From positions 62,001 to 126,000 of the forward strand of contig WGNJ01000001.1 of the NCBI GenBank assembly GCA_016124635.1: DNA of 64,000 nucleotides. Direction: 5' to 3'. Origin of the DNA: Alphaproteobacteria bacterium. Its GTDB lineage: Bacteria > Pseudomonadota > Alphaproteobacteria > Micropepsales > Micropepsaceae. This document shows, one piece after another, positions 171 to 59,321 of this stretch. Every line of letters starts with the position of its first letter. Position 1 is the first letter of the stretch. The position numbers and the translations under genes are program-made. The notes under the pieces are model-generated. The model was not told where the DNA came from and made no database searches. It worked only from the letters and a program-made list of their open reading frames with translations.

Positions 171-204
171 GCGTCACGCGTTGGAGCTTTCGTGACGCTT
201 TTTT
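171..204 (+). terminator. Hairpin followed by T-run
   Basis: An 8-bp perfect stem (GCGTCACG at 171-178, CGTGACGC at 191-198) encloses a 12-nt loop and is followed by a run of T to 204. This has the form of a rho-independent terminator for plus-strand transcription entering from the left. It also sits just upstream of the possible minus-strand start at 167, so an operator role is possible. Confidence 0.45.
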
Positions 205-47938: not shown

Positions 47939-49111
47939 ATGATTGAACCGGTGACGACGACAGAAGGCTTGGCCGCGGCCTGCGAGCGGTTGGCGCAGGC
48001 CCCCTACGTGGCGCTCGATACCGAGTTCATGCGCGACACGACCTATTGGCCCAAGCTCTGCCTGATCCAGGCGGCGACACCGAGCATTGCCGTCGTCATC
48101 GACCCATTGGCAGAAGGCATCGATCTCACGCCCCTGGTCGAGGTGCTGCGCAATCCGGACGTGATCAAGGTCTTCCACGCCTCGCGACAGGATATCGAGA
48201 TCTTCTTCCACCAAACCCGGACAATCCCGGCGCCGCTGTTCGACACCCAGGTCGCGGCAATGGTTTGCGGCTTCGGCGATGCGGCGGCCTATGAGACGCT
48301 GGTGCGCGAACTCGCCCACGCGCAGATCGACAAGTCGTCGCGCTTCACCGACTGGAGCCGCCGCCCACTGAGCGAAAAACAGCTCGCTTACGCGCTGTCT
48401 GACGTGACCCACCTGTGCCGCGTTTACGAGGCGCTGCAGCGCCAACTTGCCAAGAGCGGTCGTTCGCACTGGCTCGAGGAAGAAATGTCGGTGCTTCGCG
48501 CGCCCGAGACCTATGAGCTCAAGCCGGAAGATGCCTGGCGTCGGCTCAAGATGCGTGGAGGCAATCGGCGCTTCACGGCCGTTCTGATGGAAGTCGCCGC
48601 CTGGCGCGAGCGCGTCGCACAAGATCGCAACGTTCCACGCTCGCGCGTTCTGAAGGACGAAGCTTTGTTCGAAATCGCGGCCCAGGCGCCGCAATCGATC
48701 GACGACCTCGACGCATTGCGAGGCGTTCCAAAGGGCTTCGCCGGATCGCGCGTGGCGCAGAGTCTCGTCGACGCGGTGCGCACCGGCTTGAGCCTCCCCG
48801 CCTCCGCCGTACCTGAGATTGAGCGCGGCCCGCCGCCCCAAGTCTCCGGCGCCATCGCCGACATGTTGCGCGTGCTGCTGAAGATTCGCTGCGAGGAGCA
48901 CGGCGTTGCGCAGAAACTGATTGCATCTTCCGCCGACCTCGACGCCATCGCAGCCGATGACAAGGCCGATGTCGCAGCTCTTTCCGGTTGGCGCCGCGAA
49001 ATCTTTGGTGAGGCCGCCATCGAGCTCAAACGAGGCCGCGTCGCGTTGGGCATGCGCGGCCGCCGCGCCGTCGTCATCGCCGTCGAAAACCTGGCTTCTG
49101 CGAAAACCTGA
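47939..49111 (+). CDS. rnd: Ribonuclease D
   Basis: A 3'-5' exoribonuclease for tRNA 3'-end maturation. It is 390 residues. The DEDDy motifs are DTEFMRDTTYWP (D, E), VFHASRQDIEIFF (D) and YALSDVTHL (Y, D). One HRDC domain (residues about 205-285) and a C-terminal region (VSGAIADMLRVLLKIRCEEH) complete it. ATG 47939 is chosen over the upstream open frame, which overlaps aspS. Confidence 0.95.
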   Translation: MIEPVTTTEGLAAACERLAQAPYVALDTEFMRDTTYWPKLCLIQAATPSIAVVIDPLAEGIDLTPLVEVLRNPDVIKVFHASRQDIEIFFHQTRTIPAPLFDTQVAAMVCGFGDAAAYETLVRELAHAQIDKSSRFTDWSRRPLSEKQLAYALSDVTHLCRVYEALQRQLAKSGRSHWLEEEMSVLRAPETYELKPEDAWRRLKMRGGNRRFTAVLMEVAAWRERVAQDRNVPRSRVLKDEALFEIAAQAPQSIDDLDALRGVPKGFAGSRVAQSLVDAVRTGLSLPASAVPEIERGPPPQVSGAIADMLRVLLKIRCEEHGVAQKLIASSADLDAIAADDKADVAALSGWRREIFGEAAIELKRGRVALGMRGRRAVVIAVENLASAKT

Positions 49112-49274
49112 GACGCGCCGGCACAGAAATTGTGCACAGTTTCATCAGCCGGTGATGCCATTCCGCCGCAGCCCGTCGCAGAATGGCGGACAGCGCAGGG
49201 CCGCAACTTCCGAAATTCACAGGCGCTAGAGCCGCGGCGCGGGGCTTTCCCCTCGCGCCAAATGATTGATAAAT

Positions 49275-50444
49275 ATGGCCGAGTCTGATCGGGAGCGGCG
49301 TGTGGCCGACATCTTCTTATCCTATGCGCGCGAAGACCACGCTCGCGCCGAGCAAATTGCCAAGGCGCTGATCGCGGCCGGCTATGAGGTGTTCTGGGAC
49401 GTCGAGATCCCGCCCGGCAAAAGCTGGGCCGACGTGCTCGAGGAGAAGCTCGCCGTCTCGAAGGCGGCGATTGTCTTGTGGAGCAAGATTTCGGCGGCCT
49501 CCAAATGGGTGCGCGAAGAAGCTCGCGTTGCCCATGATCGCGGCAAGCTCATTCCCGTGCAGATCGATGGCACGTCGCCGCCCTTCGGCTTCGGCGAAAT
49601 CCAAGCAGCCGATTTGAAGGGTTGGCGCGGCGACACGAGCGATCCTCAATGGCGCGCATTGTTGAGCGCAGTATCGACGGCCGTCGCGCGGCCGCCGGCG
49701 ACGCCGTTGCCGAACGCGCAAACGGTCACACATGCGCGCGCAACGCCTCCGAGCGTCGCGGCCGATCCCACCGCTCCGGCGCCGTCAAGCTCTTGGTTCA
49801 ACCCGTCGATGCGAGGCTATCTGCTGGCGGGCGTCGGTATCGTGGCGCTGCTTGGTGCGCTCGCTCTGCGTTTCATGCCCGAACAGCCGTCAACCCCGCC
49901 CAGCACAACTGTGACAGATGGGAGTTCGTCGTCGACGACGAGTGCGAGACAAGAACCTGGCGAGGCAACCTCACCGACCGACACGCCGAGCACGGCGACA
50001 GTCCCTTCCGAATCTGCGGACACGTCATCGGACGCCGGCGAAACACTTTCAAAGGGCGTCACTCGCGCCGAGATTCGCGACTATCTCGCGGCTCACGGTT
50101 ACGAGGCCAAAATCACGACCGACGCGAACAACAATTCGATCGTCAAGACCACCGTCGACGGCGTCACCTTCAACGTCTACTTTTACGATTGCCAGGGCGA
50201 ACGTTGTCCGCAGATTCAATTCTCCGCCGGTTGGAGAATGCCGAGCCCGCCGACGCCCGAGCTGGTCAACGACTGGAATCGGTCGAAGCGGCTGGCCCGC
50301 GCCTACACCAGCGAGAAGGGCGACGAGCTCTTCATCGAGGTGGATCTCGATTTGGAGAACACGACCTCAAACGCGCAGATAAACGAATATTTGCGTGTCT
50401 GGAAAATTCTGCTTGGAAATTTCAAGAAGCACTTCTCGCTTTGA
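49275..50444 (+). CDS. Transmembrane TIR-YbjN fusion protein
   Basis: A 389-residue single-pass membrane protein. Residues about 10-135 are a TIR domain (ADIFLSYAREDHARAEQIAK, GYEVFWDVEIPPGKSW) with Glu81 in SKWVREEA at the position of the NADase catalytic Glu. Residues 140-175 form a Pro/Ala linker. A transmembrane helix lies at 182-200 (YLLAGVGIVALLGALALRF), then a Ser/Thr/Pro-rich segment (about 205-255), then a YbjN-type domain at about 260-389 (VTFNVYFYDCQGERCPQIQF, WNRSKRLARAYTSEKGDE) with Cys306 and Cys311. The topology puts TIR in the cytosol and YbjN outside. ATG 49275 is preferred; TTG 49266 would add three residues. No known partner lies alongside. Confidence 0.88.
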   Translation: MAESDRERRVADIFLSYAREDHARAEQIAKALIAAGYEVFWDVEIPPGKSWADVLEEKLAVSKAAIVLWSKISAASKWVREEARVAHDRGKLIPVQIDGTSPPFGFGEIQAADLKGWRGDTSDPQWRALLSAVSTAVARPPATPLPNAQTVTHARATPPSVAADPTAPAPSSSWFNPSMRGYLLAGVGIVALLGALALRFMPEQPSTPPSTTVTDGSSSSTTSARQEPGEATSPTDTPSTATVPSESADTSSDAGETLSKGVTRAEIRDYLAAHGYEAKITTDANNNSIVKTTVDGVTFNVYFYDCQGERCPQIQFSAGWRMPSPPTPELVNDWNRSKRLARAYTSEKGDELFIEVDLDLENTTSNAQINEYLRVWKILLGNFKKHFSL

Positions 50445-50483
50445 GAAGCAGCCCCTCGGACGAGGGGCCGCCGGAATCTCGTT

Positions 50484-50879
50484 TTAGCCGTTGCGGCACT
50501 CGCGCGGCGGAGCTTCCCATCCCCCGGCATTGCGGCACTCGCGAGCCGAACTCCACCAGTCGTGACGGCCCTTCTTGCAGCAGACCCGCTTATTCCAATC
50601 GCCACCGGTCCAACCAAACCAGCGGTGGTCCCAGCTCTCGTTCCAGTCGTCACGGCATTCGCGATTGCGAACCTGGTGCCCGCCGGCACGAGCGCAAGCC
50701 CGTCGCGTCGTAAACCAATCCTGCCACCCGCGCTTACAACAGATGCGGTCGTTCCGCGCCGCGACTTGATAAGGCGCCGCGTCGGCCACCGTCGAACGAT
50801 TGGTCGAACCTGCGAACGAACTCGACGGAGCAACACCGAGAAGCGCTAGGCAGACAGCGAACGTCAGATATTTGAGCAT
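50484..50879 (-). CDS. Secreted protein with duplicated cysteine module
   Basis: A 131-residue protein with a signal peptide (MLKYLTFAVCLALLGVAPSS) and two internal repeats, residues about 46-76 and 99-129, each with the spacing CC-x13-C-x12-C and a DWF/DWW core, ending RECRD/RECRN. Eight mature cysteines suggest disulfide-bonded domains outside the cytoplasm. The Shine-Dalgarno GGAGGAG is strong. I do not recognise the family. It converges with the TIR-YbjN gene. Confidence 0.8.
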   Translation of the reverse strand: MLKYLTFAVCLALLGVAPSSSFAGSTNRSTVADAAPYQVAARNDRICCKRGWQDWFTTRRACARAGGHQVRNRECRDDWNESWDHRWFGWTGGDWNKRVCCKKGRHDWWSSARECRNAGGWEAPPRECRNG

Positions 50880-51063
50880 GAACTCCTCCAGATACGGGTC
50901 TCGTGCAAGGACGCACGCCTGCCCGTCATGATCTGCGAAGCATGCACGAAGCCATTGAATTCACGAAGGTTTTTGGTTTGAAACGCCGGCGCGAACGAGG
51001 TTGTGTGGACGCGACAAGGAACTCGTCGGCTGCAGCAAATCCGCCGCTTGATTTTCCAAGCGC
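50880..51063. other. Divergent intergenic region
   Basis: Gap between the cysteine-module gene and the ArsR gene. Apart from the AT-rich operator at 51064-51091, I see no RNA gene or repeat. It probably holds both promoters. Confidence 0.4.
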
Positions 51064-51091
51064 TTATATATAACATACACGTTATATAACG
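51064..51091. promoter_or_regulatory. AT-rich double palindrome, likely ArsR operator
   Basis: Two palindromes, TTATATATAA (51064-51073) and CGTTATATAACG (51080-51091), lie 13-40 bases before the ArsR start in an otherwise GC-rich region. The position over the promoter suggests an autoregulatory operator. Confidence 0.55.
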
Positions 51092-51103
51092 AAGTGATGA
51101 CAT

Positions 51104-51472
51104 ATGCGCGGTCTCGACACAACCTTTGCTGCCCTCGCCGATCCGACGCGCCGCGCAATTCTTGCACGGCTTTCACTCGGTGAGGCGACGGTCATGGAAC
51201 TCGCCGAACCGTTCGAAATGACCCAACCGGCCATCTCACGCCATCTCAAGGTGCTGGAACAGGCTGGCCTCATCGCGCGCCGCATCGACGGTACGAGGCG
51301 ACCGTGCCGCCTCGCGCGCGACGGCATCGACCAGATCGACAAATGGCTCTCGCAGCTGCGCAAGGCGCTGTCGGCAAACTACGACCGGCTGGATGCGATT
51401 TTGGCCGCGTCGGCGGAGCAAATCGACAAGCGCACAGCCAAACGCTCACCCAAACGAAAGGGCAAAAGATGA
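51104..51472 (+). CDS. ArsR-family regulator
   Basis: A 122-residue winged-helix repressor (FAALADPTRRAILARLSLGE, MTQPAISRHLKVLEQAGLIA) with a basic tail (KRTAKRSPKRKGKR). It belongs to the non-metal ArsR group usually paired with an SRPBCC/AHSA1 protein, as here; the stop overlaps the next start by 4 bases. Cysteines for a metal site are lacking. Probable autorepressor via the AT-rich operator. Confidence 0.88.
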   Translation: MRGLDTTFAALADPTRRAILARLSLGEATVMELAEPFEMTQPAISRHLKVLEQAGLIARRIDGTRRPCRLARDGIDQIDKWLSQLRKALSANYDRLDAILAASAEQIDKRTAKRSPKRKGKR

Positions 51473-51948
51473 CGAAATTGACGCTCAAGACCGAAGGCGA
51501 CCGTTACGTCGTGGTCACGCGGCGCTTCGCGGCTTCGCCGGCCCAGGTCTACCGCGCCCATATCGATCCGGAAATCATCAAGAAGTGGATGCTCGGGCCC
51601 GACGGCTGGACGATGCCCGTTTGCATCAACGACGCGCGTCCGGGCGGCAAGATTCGCTACGAATGGACCAACGGCCAGGGCGGCGGCTTCTATCTCACAG
51701 GCGAGTTCATAAGGCTGGAACCGCCGCATCGCATCGTCCATGTCGAGCGCATGCACCTTCCCGACCCCACGCCGGACAACCACGTCGAAACGACATTCGA
51801 GAAGGATGGCACCGGCACGCTGATGACGATGCGCATGACCCTACCCGACCCGGCGACGCGCGAAGCGATGCTGAAGAGCGGAATGGAGCACGGTATGGAA
51901 GCCGGCTACCTGCGGCTCGAGCGCATGGCCAAGGAAGGAGATTTCTGA
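51469..51948 (+). CDS. SRPBCC (AHSA1-type) protein
   Basis: A 159-residue START-like domain protein (YVVVTRRFAASPAQVYRAHI, DPEIIKKWMLGPDGW, MEHGMEAGYLRLERMA). Such proteins have a hydrophobic pocket and are commonly coupled to ArsR regulators; ligand unknown. Start ATG 51469 overlaps the ArsR stop (ATGA). It converges with the XRE gene 34 bases away. Confidence 0.88.
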   Translation: MTKLTLKTEGDRYVVVTRRFAASPAQVYRAHIDPEIIKKWMLGPDGWTMPVCINDARPGGKIRYEWTNGQGGGFYLTGEFIRLEPPHRIVHVERMHLPDPTPDNHVETTFEKDGTGTLMTMRMTLPDPATREAMLKSGMEHGMEAGYLRLERMAKEGDF

Positions 51949-51981
51949 CGGCGAACGGCTCTCCTCTGCTTTCCTTGCGCT

Positions 51982-52251
51982 TCAATCGCTTGGTTTTGTT
52001 CTCCCTCTTGAAGGCCGAAGCAATTCCGACGGCTCGACATCCAGCGCCTCGGCAAGGCGCTGGATGATCTTGAGCGAGGCCGAATAGATGCAATGTTCGA
52101 GCTGCCAGACGTAAATTCGGCCGACGTTCGCTTTTTCTGCCAGTTCTTGCTGCGTCAGTCCGCGCTCGACGCGCAACCGATACAAATTGGCCGCAAAAAC
52201 GGCGCGCAAATCCGTTGGATCTGCTTTCTCCGCCATCTTCATGATGCTCAA
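51982..52251 (-). CDS. XRE-family DNA-binding regulator
   Basis: An 89-residue HTH_3 protein (LYRLRVERGLTQQELAEKAN, VGRIYVWQLEHCIYSASLKI). The TTG start at 52251 overlaps the TonB receptor stop by 4 bases; ATG 52242 is an alternative. It is the last gene of the receptor operon, so it may regulate that operon or respond to the same signal. With no sensor domain, its signal is unknown. Confidence 0.82.
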   Translation of the reverse strand: MSIMKMAEKADPTDLRAVFAANLYRLRVERGLTQQELAEKANVGRIYVWQLEHCIYSASLKIIQRLAEALDVEPSELLRPSRGRTKPSD

Positions 52252-54278
52252 TAGGTCACCCGCCCAACGACGCGAATGTCCCGACCGGGCATCTCCACCA
52301 CGTCGTGCACGAACGAGGACGCATTGCGCTCTACCTGGTCGGTGAGATTGCGGCCCACCAGAGACAGATCGAATGCATGATCGCCGTCGTCATAGACCCG
52401 ATAGGTGATGTCGGCGCTGAGATCGGTGTACGCGGGAGTCGGCAGTTCGAACAGACCGACCTTGTCCTGCTTTTCGACTCTGAATAGCCGAACGGCTGCG
52501 GACAACCGATCATCTTCGAGGTAGAGGCCCGGTCCATAACGCAGCGGCATCTCGCGCGGCACATTGCCGCCGTTCGAGAGCGTGCCCCGCACATAGTCCA
52601 CTTGCGCCGAAACGCCGAACACGTAGTCGCCGAGTTTCGCCAGGTCGTAGCGGCCTTGGGCCTCCGCTCCCCAAAAGCGCGCATCCTGCTGAACGTAAAA
52701 AAGCTCCTTCAGCGGATGTCCTGCATCCTCAAACGCCTGGCATGCACCCGTATCGTCGCAAAAGTTGCCGGTGAGCTGCCCGAAGATGAATCCGTCATAA
52801 AGTGCACCCCACAAAGCGGCGCGCAACTGGAACGGGCCTGTTTCGTAGGTGATTGCCGCCTCGAGTGAGTTCGCGCGCTCTAGTCCAAGTCCCGGGTCGC
52901 CGATCTCATAAGTTTGCGGGCCGTCGTGCCCACCGATCGCAAACAACTCGGGCAGATCAGGGACGCGTGCGGCGCTCGTGGCTGTCAGCTGGAATGTGGC
53001 GGCATCCGTTGGAGTCCATGCGAGGCTCGCCGATGCACTAAAGGGCGCGTAGTCGCTCGAAGTCGGTACGCCGCTGATCGGCGTCCCCTCGCGCCTAGCC
53101 CCCTCTACGCGAGCGGACGCTTCAAGCTCCCACTGCGGCCCGAACGGGAATCGCGCGAACACATAGCCGGCGACGCCCTGTGCCGTCGATGGACTCAAAT
53201 AGTCGGCCGCGTCGCCGAGCGCCGAGAAGTCCCGATGCTGAACTTGCAAGCCAAGCGCAACGGCGGACGCCGGACCGATGGCACCGAAGATCGCCTCGGC
53301 TCGGCTATCGACCTCATCGTTCAAGAATGTCGACTCGATATCGCCGGTCGCGGGATCGACCTCGTCGTGGTGATACCGTGCGTAGGCCGCCTCGACAGTT
53401 ACGCGCTGAAGCAGTCCTGCATTCGCATTCCAAATCCCGCGCGTCAGATACTTGTCTTGGCGCATGTCGATGAATGTCGTGTCCGAGGCGATGCCGTAGG
53501 TCGCGTCGTAGTGCGCGTACGCGCCGCCAAAGGATCCTTGCTCGCCGCTATAAGCCGTGCCCAAAGAATAGCCGTCGGTCTTGGCATATGAATTGACCTG
53601 CTTCCCGTCCGGCGTGTCGTAGTCGCTCGCGTGGCGCAGGAAGCCGTCGGCATGAACCGCGAAGCCTTCGCTGCCGAATGTGGTTTGAAAACCGCCGGCC
53701 CCTTCGTTGGCATTCGAGCCGTAAATGCCGTCGACTTCGCCCGTGACGCCGTCGATTGGACGGTCGGGAATGCGTCCGTTTATGACGTTGATCACGCCCC
53801 CGATCGCTTGGCTGCCGTACCGCAGCGTCGCCGCCCCGCGCACAATCTCGATGCGGCTGGCGGAGAAGATGTCGATCGGCGTCCCGTGGTCGGGACCGAT
53901 CTCCGCCACATCAAGGCTCCCGACCCCATTCTCAGTCAACAGAACGCGCGTCGCGTCGAACCCGCGGACGACGGGCCGGTTGGCGCCGGCGGTAAAGCCC
54001 GTCCCGGAAACGCCAGGCTGCTTCTCCAACGCATCGCCAATTGAAGCGCCGCCGTTCTTCAACCCTTCGTCGCGGCTGATCGTATCGACGACCTTCGAGA
54101 ACTTGTCGTTGGACTTGGCGAGCGGCGAAGCGGTGACCACCACCTTTTCGATCGGCTGATGATCTTTGTCTTGCGCCGGCGCAGCCGGCGTTTCATCGGC
54201 GCGGGAGACGGAAGGCACCGCCGCCGACATCATTAGCAGCGCGCAGAACGCTGGCAGCGTACGAACAGAATTCGACAT
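52248..54278 (-). CDS. TonB-dependent outer-membrane receptor, ZnuD-like
   Basis: A 676-residue outer-membrane receptor with a signal peptide (MSNSVRTLPAFCALLMMSAA), a TonB-box-type segment EKVVVTASPL, the plug (RPVVRGFDATRVLLTENGVG, IEIVRGAATLRYGSQAIGGV) and a beta-barrel ending VVGRVTY with terminal aromatic. The plug resembles ZnuD-type zinc receptors; a histidine-rich loop is not evident, so the metal is not settled. ATG 54278 is preferred over the upstream frame. Operon order: small membrane protein, receptor, XRE regulator. Confidence 0.85.
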   Translation of the reverse strand: MSNSVRTLPAFCALLMMSAAVPSVSRADETPAAPAQDKDHQPIEKVVVTASPLAKSNDKFSKVVDTISRDEGLKNGGASIGDALEKQPGVSGTGFTAGANRPVVRGFDATRVLLTENGVGSLDVAEIGPDHGTPIDIFSASRIEIVRGAATLRYGSQAIGGVINVINGRIPDRPIDGVTGEVDGIYGSNANEGAGGFQTTFGSEGFAVHADGFLRHASDYDTPDGKQVNSYAKTDGYSLGTAYSGEQGSFGGAYAHYDATYGIASDTTFIDMRQDKYLTRGIWNANAGLLQRVTVEAAYARYHHDEVDPATGDIESTFLNDEVDSRAEAIFGAIGPASAVALGLQVQHRDFSALGDAADYLSPSTAQGVAGYVFARFPFGPQWELEASARVEGARREGTPISGVPTSSDYAPFSASASLAWTPTDAATFQLTATSAARVPDLPELFAIGGHDGPQTYEIGDPGLGLERANSLEAAITYETGPFQLRAALWGALYDGFIFGQLTGNFCDDTGACQAFEDAGHPLKELFYVQQDARFWGAEAQGRYDLAKLGDYVFGVSAQVDYVRGTLSNGGNVPREMPLRYGPGLYLEDDRLSAAVRLFRVEKQDKVGLFELPTPAYTDLSADITYRVYDDGDHAFDLSLVGRNLTDQVERNASSFVHDVVEMPGRDIRVVGRVTY

Positions 54279-54406
54279 AATACTTCCCCAAAATCGCGTG
54301 TCTGATTGGCTGGAGTCGCGCCGGCGCAAGTGCACGCCAGGCGACTATTCGCGTTGCTGCAGGCGCGCGTTCTCACGCACGAGACACAAGCGCCTGCGAT
54401 GGCCCG

Positions 54407-54841
54407 TTAGGCCTTGGAGAAGTCGGGTGGCGGCGCGCGGCTGCGCCAATTGAGCGCGATGAGCGCGACCGGTCGCGCCTCACGGCGCTGAACGGCGGCA
54501 CGCTCGGCGCGAAGTGTCGGAAGAGCGAGAACAATTCCCGATCCGGCGACGTAGCTATGACACGCGGCAACAAGCTTGCTGATCGGGCAATCTTGGTCGC
54601 CAAGGGGCGCTTTGCTCTTTCCGGGTGCTTTGCTGGCGGACAGCCCGAAAAGGGCCTGCTCTTTCGCGTCAATGCCGATGTGGAAGTGCGCAGCCGCGAG
54701 CTGTGCTTGCGACAAGAAGGCGAACATCAACCCGAAGATAAAAATTCGCCGCACATCCACCTGCGACGTCCATCTCCGAACTTGTGCCGAAAGGCTTTTC
54801 ACCGCGTCACGCTTGCCGTCTTCGTCCGACTTGCGATGCAT
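54407..54841 (-). CDS. Small membrane/secreted protein of metal-receptor operon
   Basis: A protein of about 144 residues from ATG 54841 (MHRKSDED) with one hydrophobic segment (RRIFIFGLMFAFLSQAQLAA) followed by AHFHIG, a DCPISKLVAAC Cys pair, and a C-terminal WRSRAPPPDF motif. This layout resembles DUF2946-type proteins found beside metal TonB receptors; the match is by eye only. It is upstream of the receptor (128-base gap), likely the first gene of the operon. A longer start (54919) is less likely. Confidence 0.55.
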   Translation of the reverse strand: MHRKSDEDGKRDAVKSLSAQVRRWTSQVDVRRIFIFGLMFAFLSQAQLAAAHFHIGIDAKEQALFGLSASKAPGKSKAPLGDQDCPISKLVAACHSYVAGSGIVLALPTLRAERAAVQRREARPVALIALNWRSRAPPPDFSKA

Positions 54842-54934
54842 CTCACACGTAGATGCGCAACACAACGTTAATGCGCGACAACAGATCGTGAAACCGCTCG
54901 GCTTCGTGCAACCATGCAACGCTTAGAACCGATG

Positions 54935-54954
54935 TCTTATCGTATGCGATAAGA
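54935..54954. promoter_or_regulatory. TCTTATCG-TATG-CGATAAGA palindrome
   Basis: A perfect 8-4-8 inverted repeat 94 bases upstream of the first gene of the TonB-receptor operon. The same core recurs at 57476-57491 upstream of the S9 peptidase. On the coding strand both read AATCTTATCG-N4-CGATAA. Likely a repressor or activator site shared by the two transcription units. Confidence 0.65.
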
Positions 54955-55092
54955 TTTACCGCTCAATCGCATGAGAATAGTCGAGCAACGGCATCTCCAA
55001 ACTATGACGCTATTCTTTGAGAGCCTGCACATTTTCAAAAAGCGCCGCAATGACGTTCGATCCGCTTGACCGAACGCTCATTTAACAAGGGC

Positions 55093-55127
55093 CGGCGAGA
55101 AGCCCCGACAAAGTCGGGCCCTCGCCG
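55093..55127 (-). terminator. Two-part hairpin after the peptidase gene
   Basis: Outer stem CGGCGAG/CTCGCCG (55093-55099, 55121-55127) and inner stem CCCGAC/GTCGGG around AAA (55104-55118), 15 bases after the S9 peptidase stop. No T-run follows on the minus strand, so it may only stabilise the 3' end. Confidence 0.45.
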
Positions 55128-55141
55128 TTGCGCAAGTCGCG

Positions 55142-57328
55142 CTATTTCGCCTTCAAGTCCGGACGCCATACCGGAAGACCCGCGCGCCAAAACACGAACG
55201 CGTACATGTCGGCATAGAGCTTGTCGTTTTGCGACTTCGTCGACCCGATGCCGTGACCCGCTTCTGCATCGATCCGCAGCAGCACCGGATTGACGGTGCC
55301 GGTTGCTTGCATCGCCGCCGCGAGCTTGGCGGGCTCCCAAGGCGAGACGCGTGGGTCGTTCAGACCCGTTGTAATCATAACGGCGGGATACTGCGTTCCG
55401 GCTTTCAAATGTTGAAGCGTGTCCATCTCATAGAGGTTCTTAAAGCCCTGCTCGGTCTTTATCGTGCCGAATTCAGGGATGTTCGGCGGCCCGTTGGGCG
55501 AGAACTCGGCGCGCAGCGTGTTCGCCGCCGGCACCGCGTCGATCATGCCGGCAAAGAGATCGGGACGCTCTGTCATCGCCCGGCCCATGGTGATGCCGCC
55601 CGCCGAACCTCCGAAGATGAACAGCTTCTGCTTCGTCGTGACGCCGCGCGCGATCAAATCCTCGCCGCAGGCGATCAGATCGCGCCAAGTGTTCGGCTTG
55701 TTCTGATCCTTGCCGCCGAGACGCCACGCCTCGCCGAGCTCGCCGCCGCCGCGGACATGGCACGAAGCGTAGCTGCCGCCGGCTTCCAAGAACCCAACGG
55801 CCCGCGGCGAGAAATCGGCCAACTGCGATATGCCGTAAGATCCATAGGCTTGAATGAGGGTAACCTGCGGACCCTTGACGCCCTTCGGCTGAACAAGCGT
55901 GTCGGGGACCATGACGCCGTCCCGCGCCTTTGCTTCGAGGTCGCTCACCACATAGCGGGTACTATCGTACGGCGGCGTCACGCCGATCTTCAGATCCGCG
56001 AACGTTTTGCTCGCCGGATCGAAGCGATATTCCGAAGGCGGCACCACGAAGCTTTCGAGCGAGAAGGATATTCCCGGCAAACGCTCGTCCGTGAAGGCGT
56101 TGCTGATATGCCCTTTGAAGGGCAGTGAAACTTGTTCGGCTGTCGTTTGTCCTGCCGGGATACGCAGAAGCTGCGAATAGGCTCCCGACCGGGCCAACAC
56201 ATAGAGTGCGTCGGAAGCGGCGTGTATGGAGTCGATTACGCGTTTCGGATCCGCCGGCAGCAGCACTTTCGCATCGGACAGAGCTTGCCCGACCTTGAGA
56301 GTGAGAATTTGGAAGGTCGGCGCGCCCTGATGGGAGAGCAGGAAGATCTCGTCGCCGCGAATGTCGATCCCCGTGACGCTATCGCTGCGCGAAACGAGAT
56401 TTGTCCATTGCGCCTTTGGATCTTCGGCCTTGTCGACCGGAACAGTCGAGAGTTGGAGTTCGTTTTGAACACCGTTTATGGCGAACAGAACGGCGACCGG
56501 CGCGCCGGGAACGATGACCAACGCGGGGAATTCGTCGTGCGTGACGGCGGGCCCATGCCCGACTGTCGCCCCGAACAGCGGGACCGGATTGGATTTCAAA
56601 TTCCATGCTTCCAGGGTCGCATCGCGGTACTTCTCCGTCGGCGCATCTTTCGGTCCGAGCTTCTTCAGCCGCACGAAATACAGCGTCTTCGAATCGTTGC
56701 TCCACGACGTCGCGCCGAATTGAGCGCGATCGATCGGACCGGCGATCTGCCTTCCTGTTGCGGCATCGTAAACAAACAGCATTGCGTTTTCGGAACCGCC
56801 CTCCGAAATGCCGACGGCGACTTTTGCGCCGTCGAGCGACGGAAGGAAATAATTGATGGCGTAGGGTTTGTTGCCGTGGGCCTTGCGATAGACTTCGACG
56901 TCAATGAGCTTGCGCGCGCCTTTTTGATCTTTGACCATTAGGTCGAAGTTATCGGACCCTGGCGCTCGCAACTCGTAGAACGCGCGGCCGTTGTAAGTCG
57001 AGTAACCTTGCACGAAGCCGAAACTCCCCGTGAAGGCTGCGATCTTCTTCTCAAGGTCGGCGCGCGGTTTGATGGCGTCCAGGATCGAGCGCGTGTACTT
57101 ACCCTGCGCCTTCATCCAATCGATCGTCGATTTGTCCAACGCCTCCATGTAGCGATAGTTGTCGGTGACCTTCACACCAAAGAAGGTCTCAGTGACAGGC
57201 TTGACGGGAGCCACGGGCGGCTTCGCCGTCACGTTCAGCGGCGCGAGCGGGTCAACGGCGTCCGCGGCAAGCGCCGCGCTTGCGGCAAGCATTACGAACG
57301 AACCAAGCAAGACTGGCCTGAGCGTCAT
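55142..57328 (-). CDS. Secreted prolyl-oligopeptidase family (S9) serine peptidase
   Basis: A 728-residue protein from ATG 57328 with a signal peptide (MTLRPVLLGSFVMLAASAAL, cleavage after AADA). A seven-bladed propeller precedes the alpha/beta-hydrolase domain. Catalytic residues: Ser in IFGGSAGGITMG, Asp in TGLNDPRVSPWEPAKL, His in EAGHGIGSTKS. The family cleaves short proline-containing peptides; periplasmic location fits peptide scavenging. It shares an upstream palindrome with the TonB-receptor operon. Confidence 0.9.
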   Translation of the reverse strand: MTLRPVLLGSFVMLAASAALAADAVDPLAPLNVTAKPPVAPVKPVTETFFGVKVTDNYRYMEALDKSTIDWMKAQGKYTRSILDAIKPRADLEKKIAAFTGSFGFVQGYSTYNGRAFYELRAPGSDNFDLMVKDQKGARKLIDVEVYRKAHGNKPYAINYFLPSLDGAKVAVGISEGGSENAMLFVYDAATGRQIAGPIDRAQFGATSWSNDSKTLYFVRLKKLGPKDAPTEKYRDATLEAWNLKSNPVPLFGATVGHGPAVTHDEFPALVIVPGAPVAVLFAINGVQNELQLSTVPVDKAEDPKAQWTNLVSRSDSVTGIDIRGDEIFLLSHQGAPTFQILTLKVGQALSDAKVLLPADPKRVIDSIHAASDALYVLARSGAYSQLLRIPAGQTTAEQVSLPFKGHISNAFTDERLPGISFSLESFVVPPSEYRFDPASKTFADLKIGVTPPYDSTRYVVSDLEAKARDGVMVPDTLVQPKGVKGPQVTLIQAYGSYGISQLADFSPRAVGFLEAGGSYASCHVRGGGELGEAWRLGGKDQNKPNTWRDLIACGEDLIARGVTTKQKLFIFGGSAGGITMGRAMTERPDLFAGMIDAVPAANTLRAEFSPNGPPNIPEFGTIKTEQGFKNLYEMDTLQHLKAGTQYPAVMITTGLNDPRVSPWEPAKLAAAMQATGTVNPVLLRIDAEAGHGIGSTKSQNDKLYADMYAFVFWRAGLPVWRPDLKAK

Positions 57329-57475
57329 GAGAGCTTCCTTCAAAGATCGGAGCAGCGGTCCCGCGCAGAATAGCGCTCGCCTTCCATCGCAGCGAAGGCA
57401 GGCGGCACTAGAGACGCCGTCAACCCGTACAACTCTTCGTGTTCCGACCGCGCCGGGAAGATGCGGCAAGAGCGG

Positions 57476-57491
57476 TTATCGCATCCGATAA
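57476..57491. promoter_or_regulatory. TTATCG-CATC-CGATAA palindrome
   Basis: A perfect 6-4-6 inverted repeat about 148 bases upstream of the S9 peptidase start. It is flanked on one side by GATT as in the 54935 copy; the arms and 4-base spacing are the same. It suggests co-regulation with the TonB-receptor operon. Confidence 0.62.
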
Positions 57492-57700
57492 GATTCAACA
57501 GCGGAGAGACCGGAAAAAGCCTTTTCAGAAATTCGACGATGACATTGCGATTTTAGCAATATACAATGCCCAGCGCTAGACATCGTCCCAGCCTCATGCG
57601 GGATGCGCTCATTGAACCGGCTGCACCTACCCCAACCTCCTGGCGAGGAAGCGCACCGTTGCGCCGGCGGCAGCCAACGCCCGGGTCGGGCATGACTTCA

Positions 57701-57770
57701 TGTAGCGGCATGTAGCGCTTTGTAGCGGATTTGTAGCGGATGAAATGGCTGATTTCAGCCAATGTAGCGG
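57701..57770. repeat. Five TGTAGCGG-type direct repeats at helical spacing
   Basis: TGTAGCGG at 57701, 57721, 57732 and 57763, with the variant TGTAGCGC at 57711. Start-to-start spacing is 10, 10, 11 and 31 bases, close to whole helical turns, so all would face one side of the DNA. The last gap contains the hairpin TGGCTGA-TT-TCAGCCA (57746-57761). Likely a protein-binding array. Confidence 0.8.
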
Positions 57771-57794
57771 ATAAACGGGGGGTTGGGTGGATTG

Positions 57795-59321
57795 TCAGCG
57801 CACGTCGATCTTCGATTGACGATCGAGCAACTTACCGAGTTCGTCGAGGCGCTTTGTGACGGACTCAGCGGCCAACGCCTGTCGCGATTTAGGCAAGGTC
57901 AGGATCACGTTGGCGTTGGTAAGACGAAGCGAAGTCTCGGCCAACAGCTCGGCCGACGGTCCCGTGATCGACAGCCCCGCGCGCAGCACCGTTCCCAGCA
58001 GTTTCGCCTGCTGTCGAGCCTCGCTGCTCAAGAAGCGCTCGATACGCTCGATACGCTTCGTTTGATCGGCCGCCTCGCCCCCGTATCGATGAAAGAGCGC
58101 CAGAGCCAAGACCGCGCGTCCCGGATGATCGATCCCGATGAACGGCGCGTTCAACACCTCGACAAAAGCCTGCTCAGCGCGGTGATCGGGATGGCCGCGC
58201 CATTCGACGTCGGCAAGCCAACTTGCCGCGCTGCACAGGCGTCGAAAGCTGGCGTCGGCATTGGAGAAGACAGGCGCAATCCAACGATCGAGCACAGGCC
58301 CCAGTTCTGCGTCTCGCCCGAGCCGCATCGCCAGATCGCGACACGCGGCGATCAACGGATCCTCGCTACGTTCGTCCGCCGGAAGTTTGGCGAACAGAAC
58401 GCCCTCACGTACGCCAAATGCTGAAATCACGATGCGATCGAGCTTCAGCGACTTCATAAGCCGCTCCATCACCAATGCGCCGTATGGGATCGCCTCGACG
58501 CGTCGCCGCGTCACGTGGGCCATCGATTCCAACGATTTGCGCGATTGACTCGCCAAGAACGAGGCGAAGCCGACGGCCTCCTCGCGCGGAATTTCGTAAT
58601 GGTGGAGGATACGGATCGGATGGCCTGCATCTTCCATCATGATGCGCGCGATGTTGCGCCAGACGCCGCCGACCGCGTAGAGCGTCTTGCCTTTGAACTT
58701 GTCGCGCCCGAACATCTCCTCGAGCGCTTCGTCGACGACGCCGCGCGCGCGGTCGATCTTGCCGCCGGCGATGTCCATCAAGCGCAGCGGCCCGAACGGC
58801 AGCGTGAGACCGGACGCCGCTTTCCCGTTCGCGACCGGCGAAATCTCGAGGCTTCCGCCGCCCAGGTCGCCGACCAACCCGTCGGCGTCCGGGATCGCGG
58901 CCAATACGCCTTCCGCCGCAAAGCGCGCCTCATCCTCGCCCGACAGGACCTTTACGGGCGATCCGAGCGCGTTGCGCGCCCGCACCACGAATTCGTTGCC
59001 GTTCTGCGCATCGCGAACGGCAGCCGTCGCCACGGCTTCGATGCGGCTCACGTGCAGCGCCTGGGCAATCTCGCGAAACCGCCCGAGCGCGACGATCGCC
59101 TGCTCGACACCCGCGTCGTCGAGACGGCCCGTCGAAACCATGTTGCGGCCGATGCCGCACAGCGACTTTTCGTTGAAGAGCGTGATCGGGCTGCGCGTCA
59201 GTCGATCGAACACGACGAGGCGCACGGAGTTCGATCCGATATCGACGACACCGAACGGCGCTGCGTTCGTGGCTTGCTGCGCGCTTGATCGGCGCGTGGT
59301 TTCGGCGCTTGCAGCCGCCAT
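57795..59321 (-). CDS. ppx: Exopolyphosphatase (Ppx/GppA family)
   Basis: Hydrolyses terminal phosphates from polyphosphate (and possibly pppGpp). It is 508 residues, with actin-like-fold phosphate motifs VVDIGSNSVRLVVFD and GLVGDLGGGSLEIS, the catalytic SGEDEAR segment, and a C-terminal helical domain. It is 6 bases downstream of ppk, which makes the substrate, so the two form a polyphosphate operon. Confidence 0.95.
   Translation of the reverse strand: MAAASAETTRRSSAQQATNAAPFGVVDIGSNSVRLVVFDRLTRSPITLFNEKSLCGIGRNMVSTGRLDDAGVEQAIVALGRFREIAQALHVSRIEAVATAAVRDAQNGNEFVVRARNALGSPVKVLSGEDEARFAAEGVLAAIPDADGLVGDLGGGSLEISPVANGKAASGLTLPFGPLRLMDIAGGKIDRARGVVDEALEEMFGRDKFKGKTLYAVGGVWRNIARIMMEDAGHPIRILHHYEIPREEAVGFASFLASQSRKSLESMAHVTRRRVEAIPYGALVMERLMKSLKLDRIVISAFGVREGVLFAKLPADERSEDPLIAACRDLAMRLGRDAELGPVLDRWIAPVFSNADASFRRLCSAASWLADVEWRGHPDHRAEQAFVEVLNAPFIGIDHPGRAVLALALFHRYGGEAADQTKRIERIERFLSSEARQQAKLLGTVLRAGLSITGPSAELLAETSLRLTNANVILTLPKSRQALAAESVTKRLDELGKLLDRQSKIDVR

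What the first reader, a model, noticed from the sequence alone, without database searches (positions are those of the whole stretch)
49275..50444. Membrane TIR domain fused to an extracytoplasmic YbjN domain
The TIR domain keeps the catalytic-type Glu (Glu81, W-x-x-E) expected of NAD-cleaving TIRs. A single transmembrane helix and a Ser/Thr/Pro stalk join it to a YbjN-type domain with a Cys pair. The topology suggests an outside sensor controlling an inside effector in one protein, for envelope stress, phage or toxin attack. I know of secreted YbjN proteins and many TIR effectors, but not this fusion as a described system. It stands alone, which makes a one-protein system possible.
Basis: partly seen in the sequence, partly recalled or inferred. 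Interest (0 to 1): 0.82.

Follow-up and report, generated by a model that had tools for sequence, protein, structure and literature searches.

The report
Bacterial membrane TIR with outside sensor
A bacterial protein joins a probable NAD-cutting TIR enzyme inside the cell, through one membrane helix, to a YbjN-type domain that probably lies outside; it looks like a mirror-image Toll receptor, and its function is untested.

Summary
The fusion is real. One 389-codon frame carries TIR_2 (87 bits) and YbjN (61 bits), both far above their Pfam cut-offs, with one hydrophobic helix and a Ser/Thr/Pro stalk between. An orthologue (57% identity) in a second same-genus genome sits in the same aspS-rnd-X-ppx-ppk locus, so it is not an assembly artefact. 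The fusion was found in 2 of 96 genomes of the order. One predicted model matches both TIR structures and E. coli YbjN.

Two corrections: the catalytic-type Glu is E82 (W78+4; Glu in 46 of 51 TIRs), not E81 (Glu in 14 of 51); the start is probably GTG 49302, not ATG 49275.

An outside YbjN is supported indirectly: all 44 stand-alone relatives with a called signal peptide have the Cys pair, and the only 3 of 52 without the pair have no signal. Separate trees suggest an exchange of the outer domain: the TIR groups with two TIR-TM proteins bearing another ectodomain, the YbjN with a secreted YbjN of the same genome. Related TIRs carry SPOR, FGE-sulfatase or MORN after one predicted TM.

Best reading: a single-pass TIR enzyme gated by a periplasmic YbjN domain. 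Activity, trigger and outcome are inferred.

The parts
49302..50444 (+). Residue numbers in this report count from 49275.
   Evidence: Open frame; GTG start with purine run shared with the orthologue
49311..49643 (+). TIR domain, residues 13-123 (model: to about 138)
   Evidence: Pfam TIR_2 87.3 bits; model and Foldseek
49518..49520 (+).
   Evidence: Alignment to RPP1; Glu in 46 of 51 TIRs at E82, 14 of 51 at E81
49815..49883 (+). Predicted transmembrane helix, residues about 181-203
   Evidence: Hydropathy window 183-201, mean 2.21; helix 178-199 in the model
49884..50048 (+). Ser/Thr/Pro-rich acidic stalk, residues 204-258
   Evidence: Sequence; pLDDT under 50 at 203-257; 17% identity to the orthologue
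50064..50432 (+). YbjN domain, residues 264-386
   Evidence: Pfam YbjN 61.0 bits; Foldseek 6vu7
50190..50207 (+). Cys306 to Cys311 (C-x4-C) in the hairpin between strands 297-304 and 313-321
   Evidence: Cys at both columns in 52 of 55 aligned rows, the query and its own copy both counted; model
49249..49275 (+). Conserved upstream stretch shared with the orthologue (CCTCGCGCC...ATTGATA-ATA), possibly promoter or leader
   Evidence: DNA alignment; no sigma-70 consensus found
47939..49111 (+). rnd (RNase D), conserved upstream neighbour (gene name from memory of the family; context, not part of the protein)
   Evidence: 90% identity in the orthologue's locus

Best explanation
It is a single-pass inner-membrane receptor-enzyme. 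The N-terminal TIR lies in the cytoplasm and, when brought together with other TIRs, cleaves NAD+ using Glu82. The C-terminal YbjN domain lies in the periplasm, probably dimeric and disulphide-stabilised, and binds an extended or unfolded peptide or protein of the envelope, as its chaperone-like fold suggests. Binding changes the spacing or clustering of the protein through the flexible stalk and so gates the TIR. The outcome would be NAD+ loss or an ADP-ribose-type signal that leads to growth arrest. Shown here: domains, order, kept Glu, kept Cys pair, orthologue, selection on both domains. Supported but not proven: topology, exchange of the outer domain. Inferred: NAD cleavage, clustering, ligand, outcome.
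For: Both domains over cut-off and in one model; orthologue with the same order and locus; Glu82 in 46 of 51 TIRs; purifying selection on TIR and YbjN; Cys pair in all 44 stand-alone YbjNs with a called signal peptide; relatives with one predicted TM followed by SPOR, FGE-sulfatase or MORN; YbjN fold is chaperone-like and AmyR is a dimer (PMC5398634 passages); prokaryotic TIRs need the Glu and probably self-association (PMC7282519 passages); a TM tether restrains an amoeba TIR of bacterial origin (PMC13142454 passages).
Against: No functional data. Only two genomes carry this fusion among those searched. Charge bias around the helix is weak. 5 of the 8 stand-alone YbjNs without a called signal also have the Cys pair (three look like non-ATG signal peptides by eye). 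AmyR has a disulphide in another loop, so Cys alone does not prove export. The position beside housekeeping genes is not that of a typical defence island. No ligand or partner is known.
Confidence: 0.47

Rival explanations
1. Scaffold rather than enzyme: TIR-TIR contacts cluster the protein in the membrane and the YbjN domain does periplasmic work, for example holding an exported protein. NAD chemistry is weak or absent.
For: Stable place beside rnd and ppx in two species; YbjN proteins are chaperone-like; five TIR-kinase relatives have lost the Glu (Val), so TIRs of this set can do without it.
Against: The Glu is kept here and in the orthologue, and TIR dN/dS is 0.08.
Confidence: 0.25
2. Dedicated anti-phage system: the outer domain detects phage adsorption or injection and the TIR kills or arrests the cell (abortive infection).
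For: TIR weakly resembles defence TIRs (PADLOC SAVED_TIR, ThsB; NCBIfam ThcB4 and retron-TIR far under their cut-offs); one gene would suffice.
Against: No known partner beside it; stable chromosomal place; no phage or viral match. The silent ThsA-type searches are uninformative because no control rang.
Confidence: 0.17
3. YbjN is cytoplasmic and the hydrophobic helix only docks the protein to the membrane or packs inside the protein.
For: Weak charge bias; canonical YbjNs such as E. coli's have no signal peptide (recalled).
Against: Cys-pair pattern; the fused YbjN groups with a secreted YbjN; a relative carries SPOR, a periplasmic wall-binding domain (its function recalled).
Confidence: 0.1
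4. Assembly artefact or decaying chance fusion.
For: Only two genomes carry it among those searched.
Against: Two assemblies with contigs of 326 and 335 kb, same locus, no stop inside, dN/dS 0.21 over 353 codons.
Confidence: 0.01

Closest known systems
Prokaryotic TIR NADases (AbTir, BtpA/TcpB, PdTIR, Thoeris ThsB, SpbK)
   Same: TIR fold (Foldseek hits to AbTir, BtpA and PdTIR) with the catalytic-type Glu kept.
   Different: Joined to one TM and an extracytoplasmic YbjN domain; no activity tested; no known effector partner.
YbjN family (E. coli YbjN, E. amylovora AmyR, D. radiodurans DR1245)
   Same: Pfam YbjN over cut-off; Foldseek to 6vu7.
   Different: Belongs with the signal-peptide, Cys-pair branch and is fused to TIR-TM.
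Toll-like and IL-1 receptors
   Same: Single-pass membrane protein with a cytoplasmic TIR and an outer domain (works like).
   Different: Reversed order (TIR first), no LRR or Ig domain, catalytic Glu kept; not a member.
Other proteobacterial TIR-TM-ectodomain proteins (L013, L014, L025, L151, L153, L154, L003)
   Same: N-terminal TIR, one predicted TM, C-terminal ectodomain. L013 and L014 have the nearest TIRs (66% and 63% identity), and their match runs on past the TIR to query residue 208, through the TM.
   Different: Ectodomain is MORN (L025), SPOR (L151), FGE-sulfatase (L153, L154), TPR-like by eye (L003) or unassigned by Pfam (L013, L014).
TirC of Dictyostelium (PMC13142454)
   Same: TIR held at a membrane by one helix; per the passages seen, removing the helix gives toxicity.
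   Different: Eukaryotic, N-terminal helix, no ectodomain described in the passages seen.

Membership tests
TIR domain (Pfam TIR_2) | Profile score over the gathering cut-off | tested here: met
   87.3 bits against 28
TIR NADases | Catalytic Glu at the position of RPP1 E164 / RUN1 E100 / SARM1 E642 | tested here: met
   E82 aligns with the Glu of RPP1 W-C-L-D-E; that this is E164 rests on a count from a recalled construct boundary plus PMC7282519 (passages)
TIR NADases | NAD+ cleavage dependent on that Glu | not testable with these tools
   Needs an assay
YbjN (PF10722) | Profile score over cut-off and the T3SS-chaperone-like fold | tested here: met
   61.0 bits against 22; a-b-b-b-b-a-b-b-a order and 6vu7 hit, TMt 0.54
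Secreted, Cys-pair YbjN branch | Cys pair in the hairpin; grouping with signal-peptide members | tested here: met
   C306 and C311; sister to L007 with support 0.921
Single-pass N-in/C-out membrane protein | One TM with the C-terminus outside | tested here: inconclusive
   One hydrophobic helix; orientation only by indirect evidence
Toll-like receptors | Ectodomain (LRR) - TM - TIR order | tested here: not met
   Order is TIR - TM - YbjN and no LRR was reported
Thoeris | ThsB TIR beside a ThsA effector | tested here: inconclusive
   No ThsA-type gene seen beside it; the whole-genome searches for STALD and ThsA_Macro found nothing but no control rang

The most novel reading that the evidence does not exclude
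Proteobacteria have a family of mirror-image Toll receptors: an N-terminal catalytic TIR and one membrane helix, to which evolution attaches interchangeable periplasmic sensors (YbjN for unfolded peptides, SPOR for naked peptidoglycan, FGE-like, MORN), turning envelope state directly into NAD+ cleavage in one protein. The window protein is a member caught after a recent exchange of its sensor.
Probability: 0.36. Interest if true: 0.82.

Novelty: new variant of a known kind. Interest (0 to 1): 0.62.

Why it matters
Sensing by bacterial TIR proteins is mostly known inside the cell (recalled). A TIR enzyme wired through the membrane to an outside domain would let one protein report envelope attack and set off NAD-based arrest, a bacterial counterpart, in reversed order, of Toll receptors. 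The different outer domains on one TIR-TM chassis give a direct test: the same TIR with YbjN, SPOR or another ectodomain should answer different triggers.

Tried and rejected
Assembly artefact or chance fusion: rejected by the orthologue at the same locus. ATG 49275 as start: doubtful, GTG 49302 preferred.

Other TIR-YbjN fusions: besides G000 and G002 none in 100 relatives and 96 order genomes; besides G000 none in 385 class genomes and 398 phylum genomes (G002 was not among those seen there). In some searches at most four candidates per genome were scored, so recall is limited. In the order-wide YbjN search 12 listed matches lie in open frames of more than 300 aa: two are the fusions, two (G102, G003) were examined and show a signal-like N-terminus and no TIR hit, and eight were fetched. 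In one search the TIR profile hit none of those eight stretches; the YbjN profile hit five; the other three (L168, L169, L170) gave no hit to my profiles, so there the absence of TIR rests on the TIR profile and reading by eye. The phylum YbjN list was cut by the tool and only partly examined.

Phage or prophage origin: no match in the phage collection; in viral contigs 74 pattern matches, none confirmed. CsgG as a conserved YbjN neighbour: seen in this genome only, 0 of 9 other loci of 6.7-13 kb. Thoeris effectors in the genome: no hit, but controls were silent, so nothing follows. Promoter scan: no sigma-70 consensus. Sequence search of the YbjN domain against the PDB: no YbjN hit, only four weak unrelated chains; the fold search found it. 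Literature: searches showed no TIR-YbjN fusion in the listings and passages seen; one search listed 30 of 49 YbjN papers; only open-access PMC papers are held. The second structure job was not used. The probability of the novel case was lowered from 0.38 to 0.36 because the direction of the domain exchange is not resolved.

Full report
What is there. The frame at 49275-50444 encodes 389 aa. Pfam gives TIR_2 at residues 13-123 (87.3 bits, cut-off 28) and YbjN at 264-386 (61.0 bits, cut-off 22). A 19-residue window at 183-201 has mean hydropathy 2.21 and is the only segment over the threshold. An AlphaFold2 model from ten sequences (mean pLDDT 72, pTM 0.43) has the TIR, a helix at 178-199, low-confidence linkers (144-176 and 203-257 under pLDDT 50) and a domain of order a-b-b-b-b-a-b-b-a at 261-386. 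Foldseek of that one model against the PDB returns SARM1, AbTir, RUN1, BtpA, PdTIR and TLR1 TIRs and, at rank 47, E. coli YbjN 6vu7 (E 1.4e-4, TMt 0.54). A sequence search of the YbjN part alone found no YbjN in the PDB.

In the alignment to RPP1 the second Glu of W-V-R-E-E falls on the Glu of W-C-L-D-E. PMC7282519 names RPP1 E164, RUN1 E100 and SARM1 E642 as the putative catalytic Glu (passages); that the aligned chain residue is E164 follows from counting with a construct boundary I recall. Across 51 TIRs (query included; three from other genes of the own genome) the column of E82 is Glu in 46 and Val in 5; the five with Val are exactly the five with a kinase domain of the L031 type. The column of E81 is Glu in 14. 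So E82 is the residue to mutate. The orthologue's frame opens three codons before a GTG, and both genes have a purine run (GGGAG and GAGGA) 6 bases before that GTG. GTG 49302 is therefore the better start, giving 380 aa (E82 would then be residue 73).

Orthologue and distribution. One full-length relative was found, G002:C24, the same contig as L012 (JANXXU010000048.1, titled a MAG of an alphaproteobacterium; both 335,271 long). It has 57% identity and both domains over cut-off. The two rnd genes are 90% identical, against 75-77% to the other nine genomes of the genus, so the two are closest to each other. The fusion is in 2 of 96 genomes of the order, both in the genus (2 of 11), and in 2 of 100 relatives. 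In 385 class genomes and 398 phylum genomes only the own genome showed it (at most four candidates scored per genome). Of the nine other same-genus genomes, six have ppx downstream of rnd (in three of them after one other gene), two have other genes there, and in the ninth (G003) the contig ends inside rnd (read by eye); the TIR profile hit none of those nine loci. In L012 the order is aspS-rnd-fusion-ppx-ppk. In the window it is the same, with about 7.3 kb between the fusion and ppx (57798-59315).

Selection. Nei-Gojobori between the two genes (dS about 1.5-1.7, so rough): TIR dN/dS 0.08 (80% identity), YbjN 0.24 (54%), stalk 0.59 (17%), whole 0.21 over 353 codons. Both domains are kept by selection, the TIR more strictly.

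Which side is YbjN on? Of 54 unique YbjN domains collected, 52 are stand-alone. My simple rule (ATG, then a hydrophobic stretch, within 75 residues of the domain) called a signal peptide in 44; all 44 have the two Cys. Eight had no called signal: 5 with the pair and 3 without (Fisher p 0.0025). By eye three of the five (L136, L135, L011) look like signal peptides with a non-ATG start, L040 lacks a recognisable N-terminus and L094 is unclear. The three without the pair (L050, L145, L150) have short non-hydrophobic N-termini. Both fused domains have the pair. The sequences are related, so the p value overstates independence. The stalk side of the helix is acidic (1 basic, 8 acidic) and the TIR side slightly basic (2 and 1); in the orthologue 4 basic and 2 acidic before, 2 and 4 after; this fits N-in only weakly. 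AmyR has a C28-C31 disulphide in another loop (PMC5398634 passages), a caution against reading Cys alone.

Origin. FastTree on TIR domains puts the two fusion TIRs with L013 and L014 (support 0.998), MAGs titled Hyphomonadaceae and Caulobacteraceae, with TIR, one TM and a tail without Pfam hit over cut-off; their tblastn match runs through the TM to query residue 208. FastTree on YbjN domains puts the two fused domains with L007, a secreted YbjN on contig C11 of the same genome (support 0.921; 40% identity). The trees thus fit an exchange of the outer domain on a TIR-TM chassis. They are midpoint-rooted trees of short domains, and the direction of the exchange is not resolved.

The chassis. 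Of the 51 TIRs, chosen mostly by similarity to this protein and so a biased set, 17 (query included) have exactly one predicted TM starting within 120 residues after the TIR (one, L155, is incomplete). Ectodomains with Pfam scores over cut-off among them: SPOR (L151, the same place as L129; 29 bits, cut-off 21), FGE-sulfatase (L154 198.5 bits; L153, the same place as L126, 177 bits; cut-off 23.3), MORN (L025, 34 bits, cut-off 22.5). L033, L051 and L152 gave no ectodomain family over cut-off. SPOR binds peptidoglycan in the periplasm (recalled), which supports an outside C-terminus for this architecture. The own genome holds a second TIR-TM protein (C3, L003) with a TPR-like tail by eye; its TPR score is under cut-off. 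Multi-TM TIR proteins and fusions without a predicted TM also occur in the set.

Mechanism. Committed reading: a membrane-tethered TIR NADase gated by a periplasmic, probably dimeric, peptide-binding YbjN domain. Support from the literature, seen as passages only: the AmyR fold is T3SS-chaperone-like and the protein is a dimer (PMC5398634); YbjN belongs to a superfamily of peptide-binding chaperones (PMC9503650); examined prokaryotic TIRs need the Glu and probably self-association (PMC7282519); an amoeba TIR of bacterial origin is toxic without its TM (PMC13142454). What is sensed and what follows is not shown.

Literature. 'TIR domain' with 'YbjN' gave 2 papers; in PMC9503650, whose passages I saw, YbjN appears only as a chaperone superfamily and in references; PMC10299390 was seen as a listing only. 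Searches for TIR with SPOR (10 papers, none about such a fusion by title or start of abstract), FGE-sulfatase (0), type III secretion chaperone (3) and broader ones showed no description of bacterial TIR-TM-ectodomain receptors in what I saw. PMC7075850 states that prokaryotic TIR groups have diverse domain architectures (passages). Subscription papers are not covered, and databases may list such architectures without comment.

Score. The fusion is real, kept in a pair of species and placed in a wider modular pattern; function is untested. Novelty: new variant of a known kind. Interest 0.62.

Noticed in passing
L151, L153, L154, L025: Related TIRs with one predicted TM carry SPOR, FGE-sulfatase (two) or MORN ectodomains over Pfam cut-off: a modular TIR-TM-X pattern wider than this finding.
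   Followed up: partly
L029, L031, L032, L035, L036: TIR-kinase fusions of the same family of bacteria have Val in place of the catalytic Glu (W-V-R-D-V), suggesting a non-enzymatic TIR.
   Followed up: partly
L157 80-4503 (own genome, contig C11): The nearest secreted YbjN lies downstream of a CsgG-type gene (91.9 bits, cut-off 20.8), two secreted proteins without a family and two TPR proteins; the arrangement was not found at 9 other YbjN loci.
   Followed up: partly
window 50484-50879, minus strand: Small secreted-looking Cys- and Trp-rich protein with two similar repeats, convergent with the fusion gene; no Pfam family at E 0.01.
   Followed up: no
window 50445-57797: About 7.3 kb lies between the fusion and ppx here, where the orthologous locus has ppx directly next to the fusion: an insertion or rearrangement.
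   Followed up: no
L013 4610-4993, minus strand: A second TIR gene, with several predicted TM helices after the TIR, lies divergently beside the TIR-TM gene nearest to ours.
   Followed up: no
L003 736-1893, minus strand (own genome, contig C3): A second TIR protein of the own genome with one predicted TM and a TPR-like tail.
   Followed up: no
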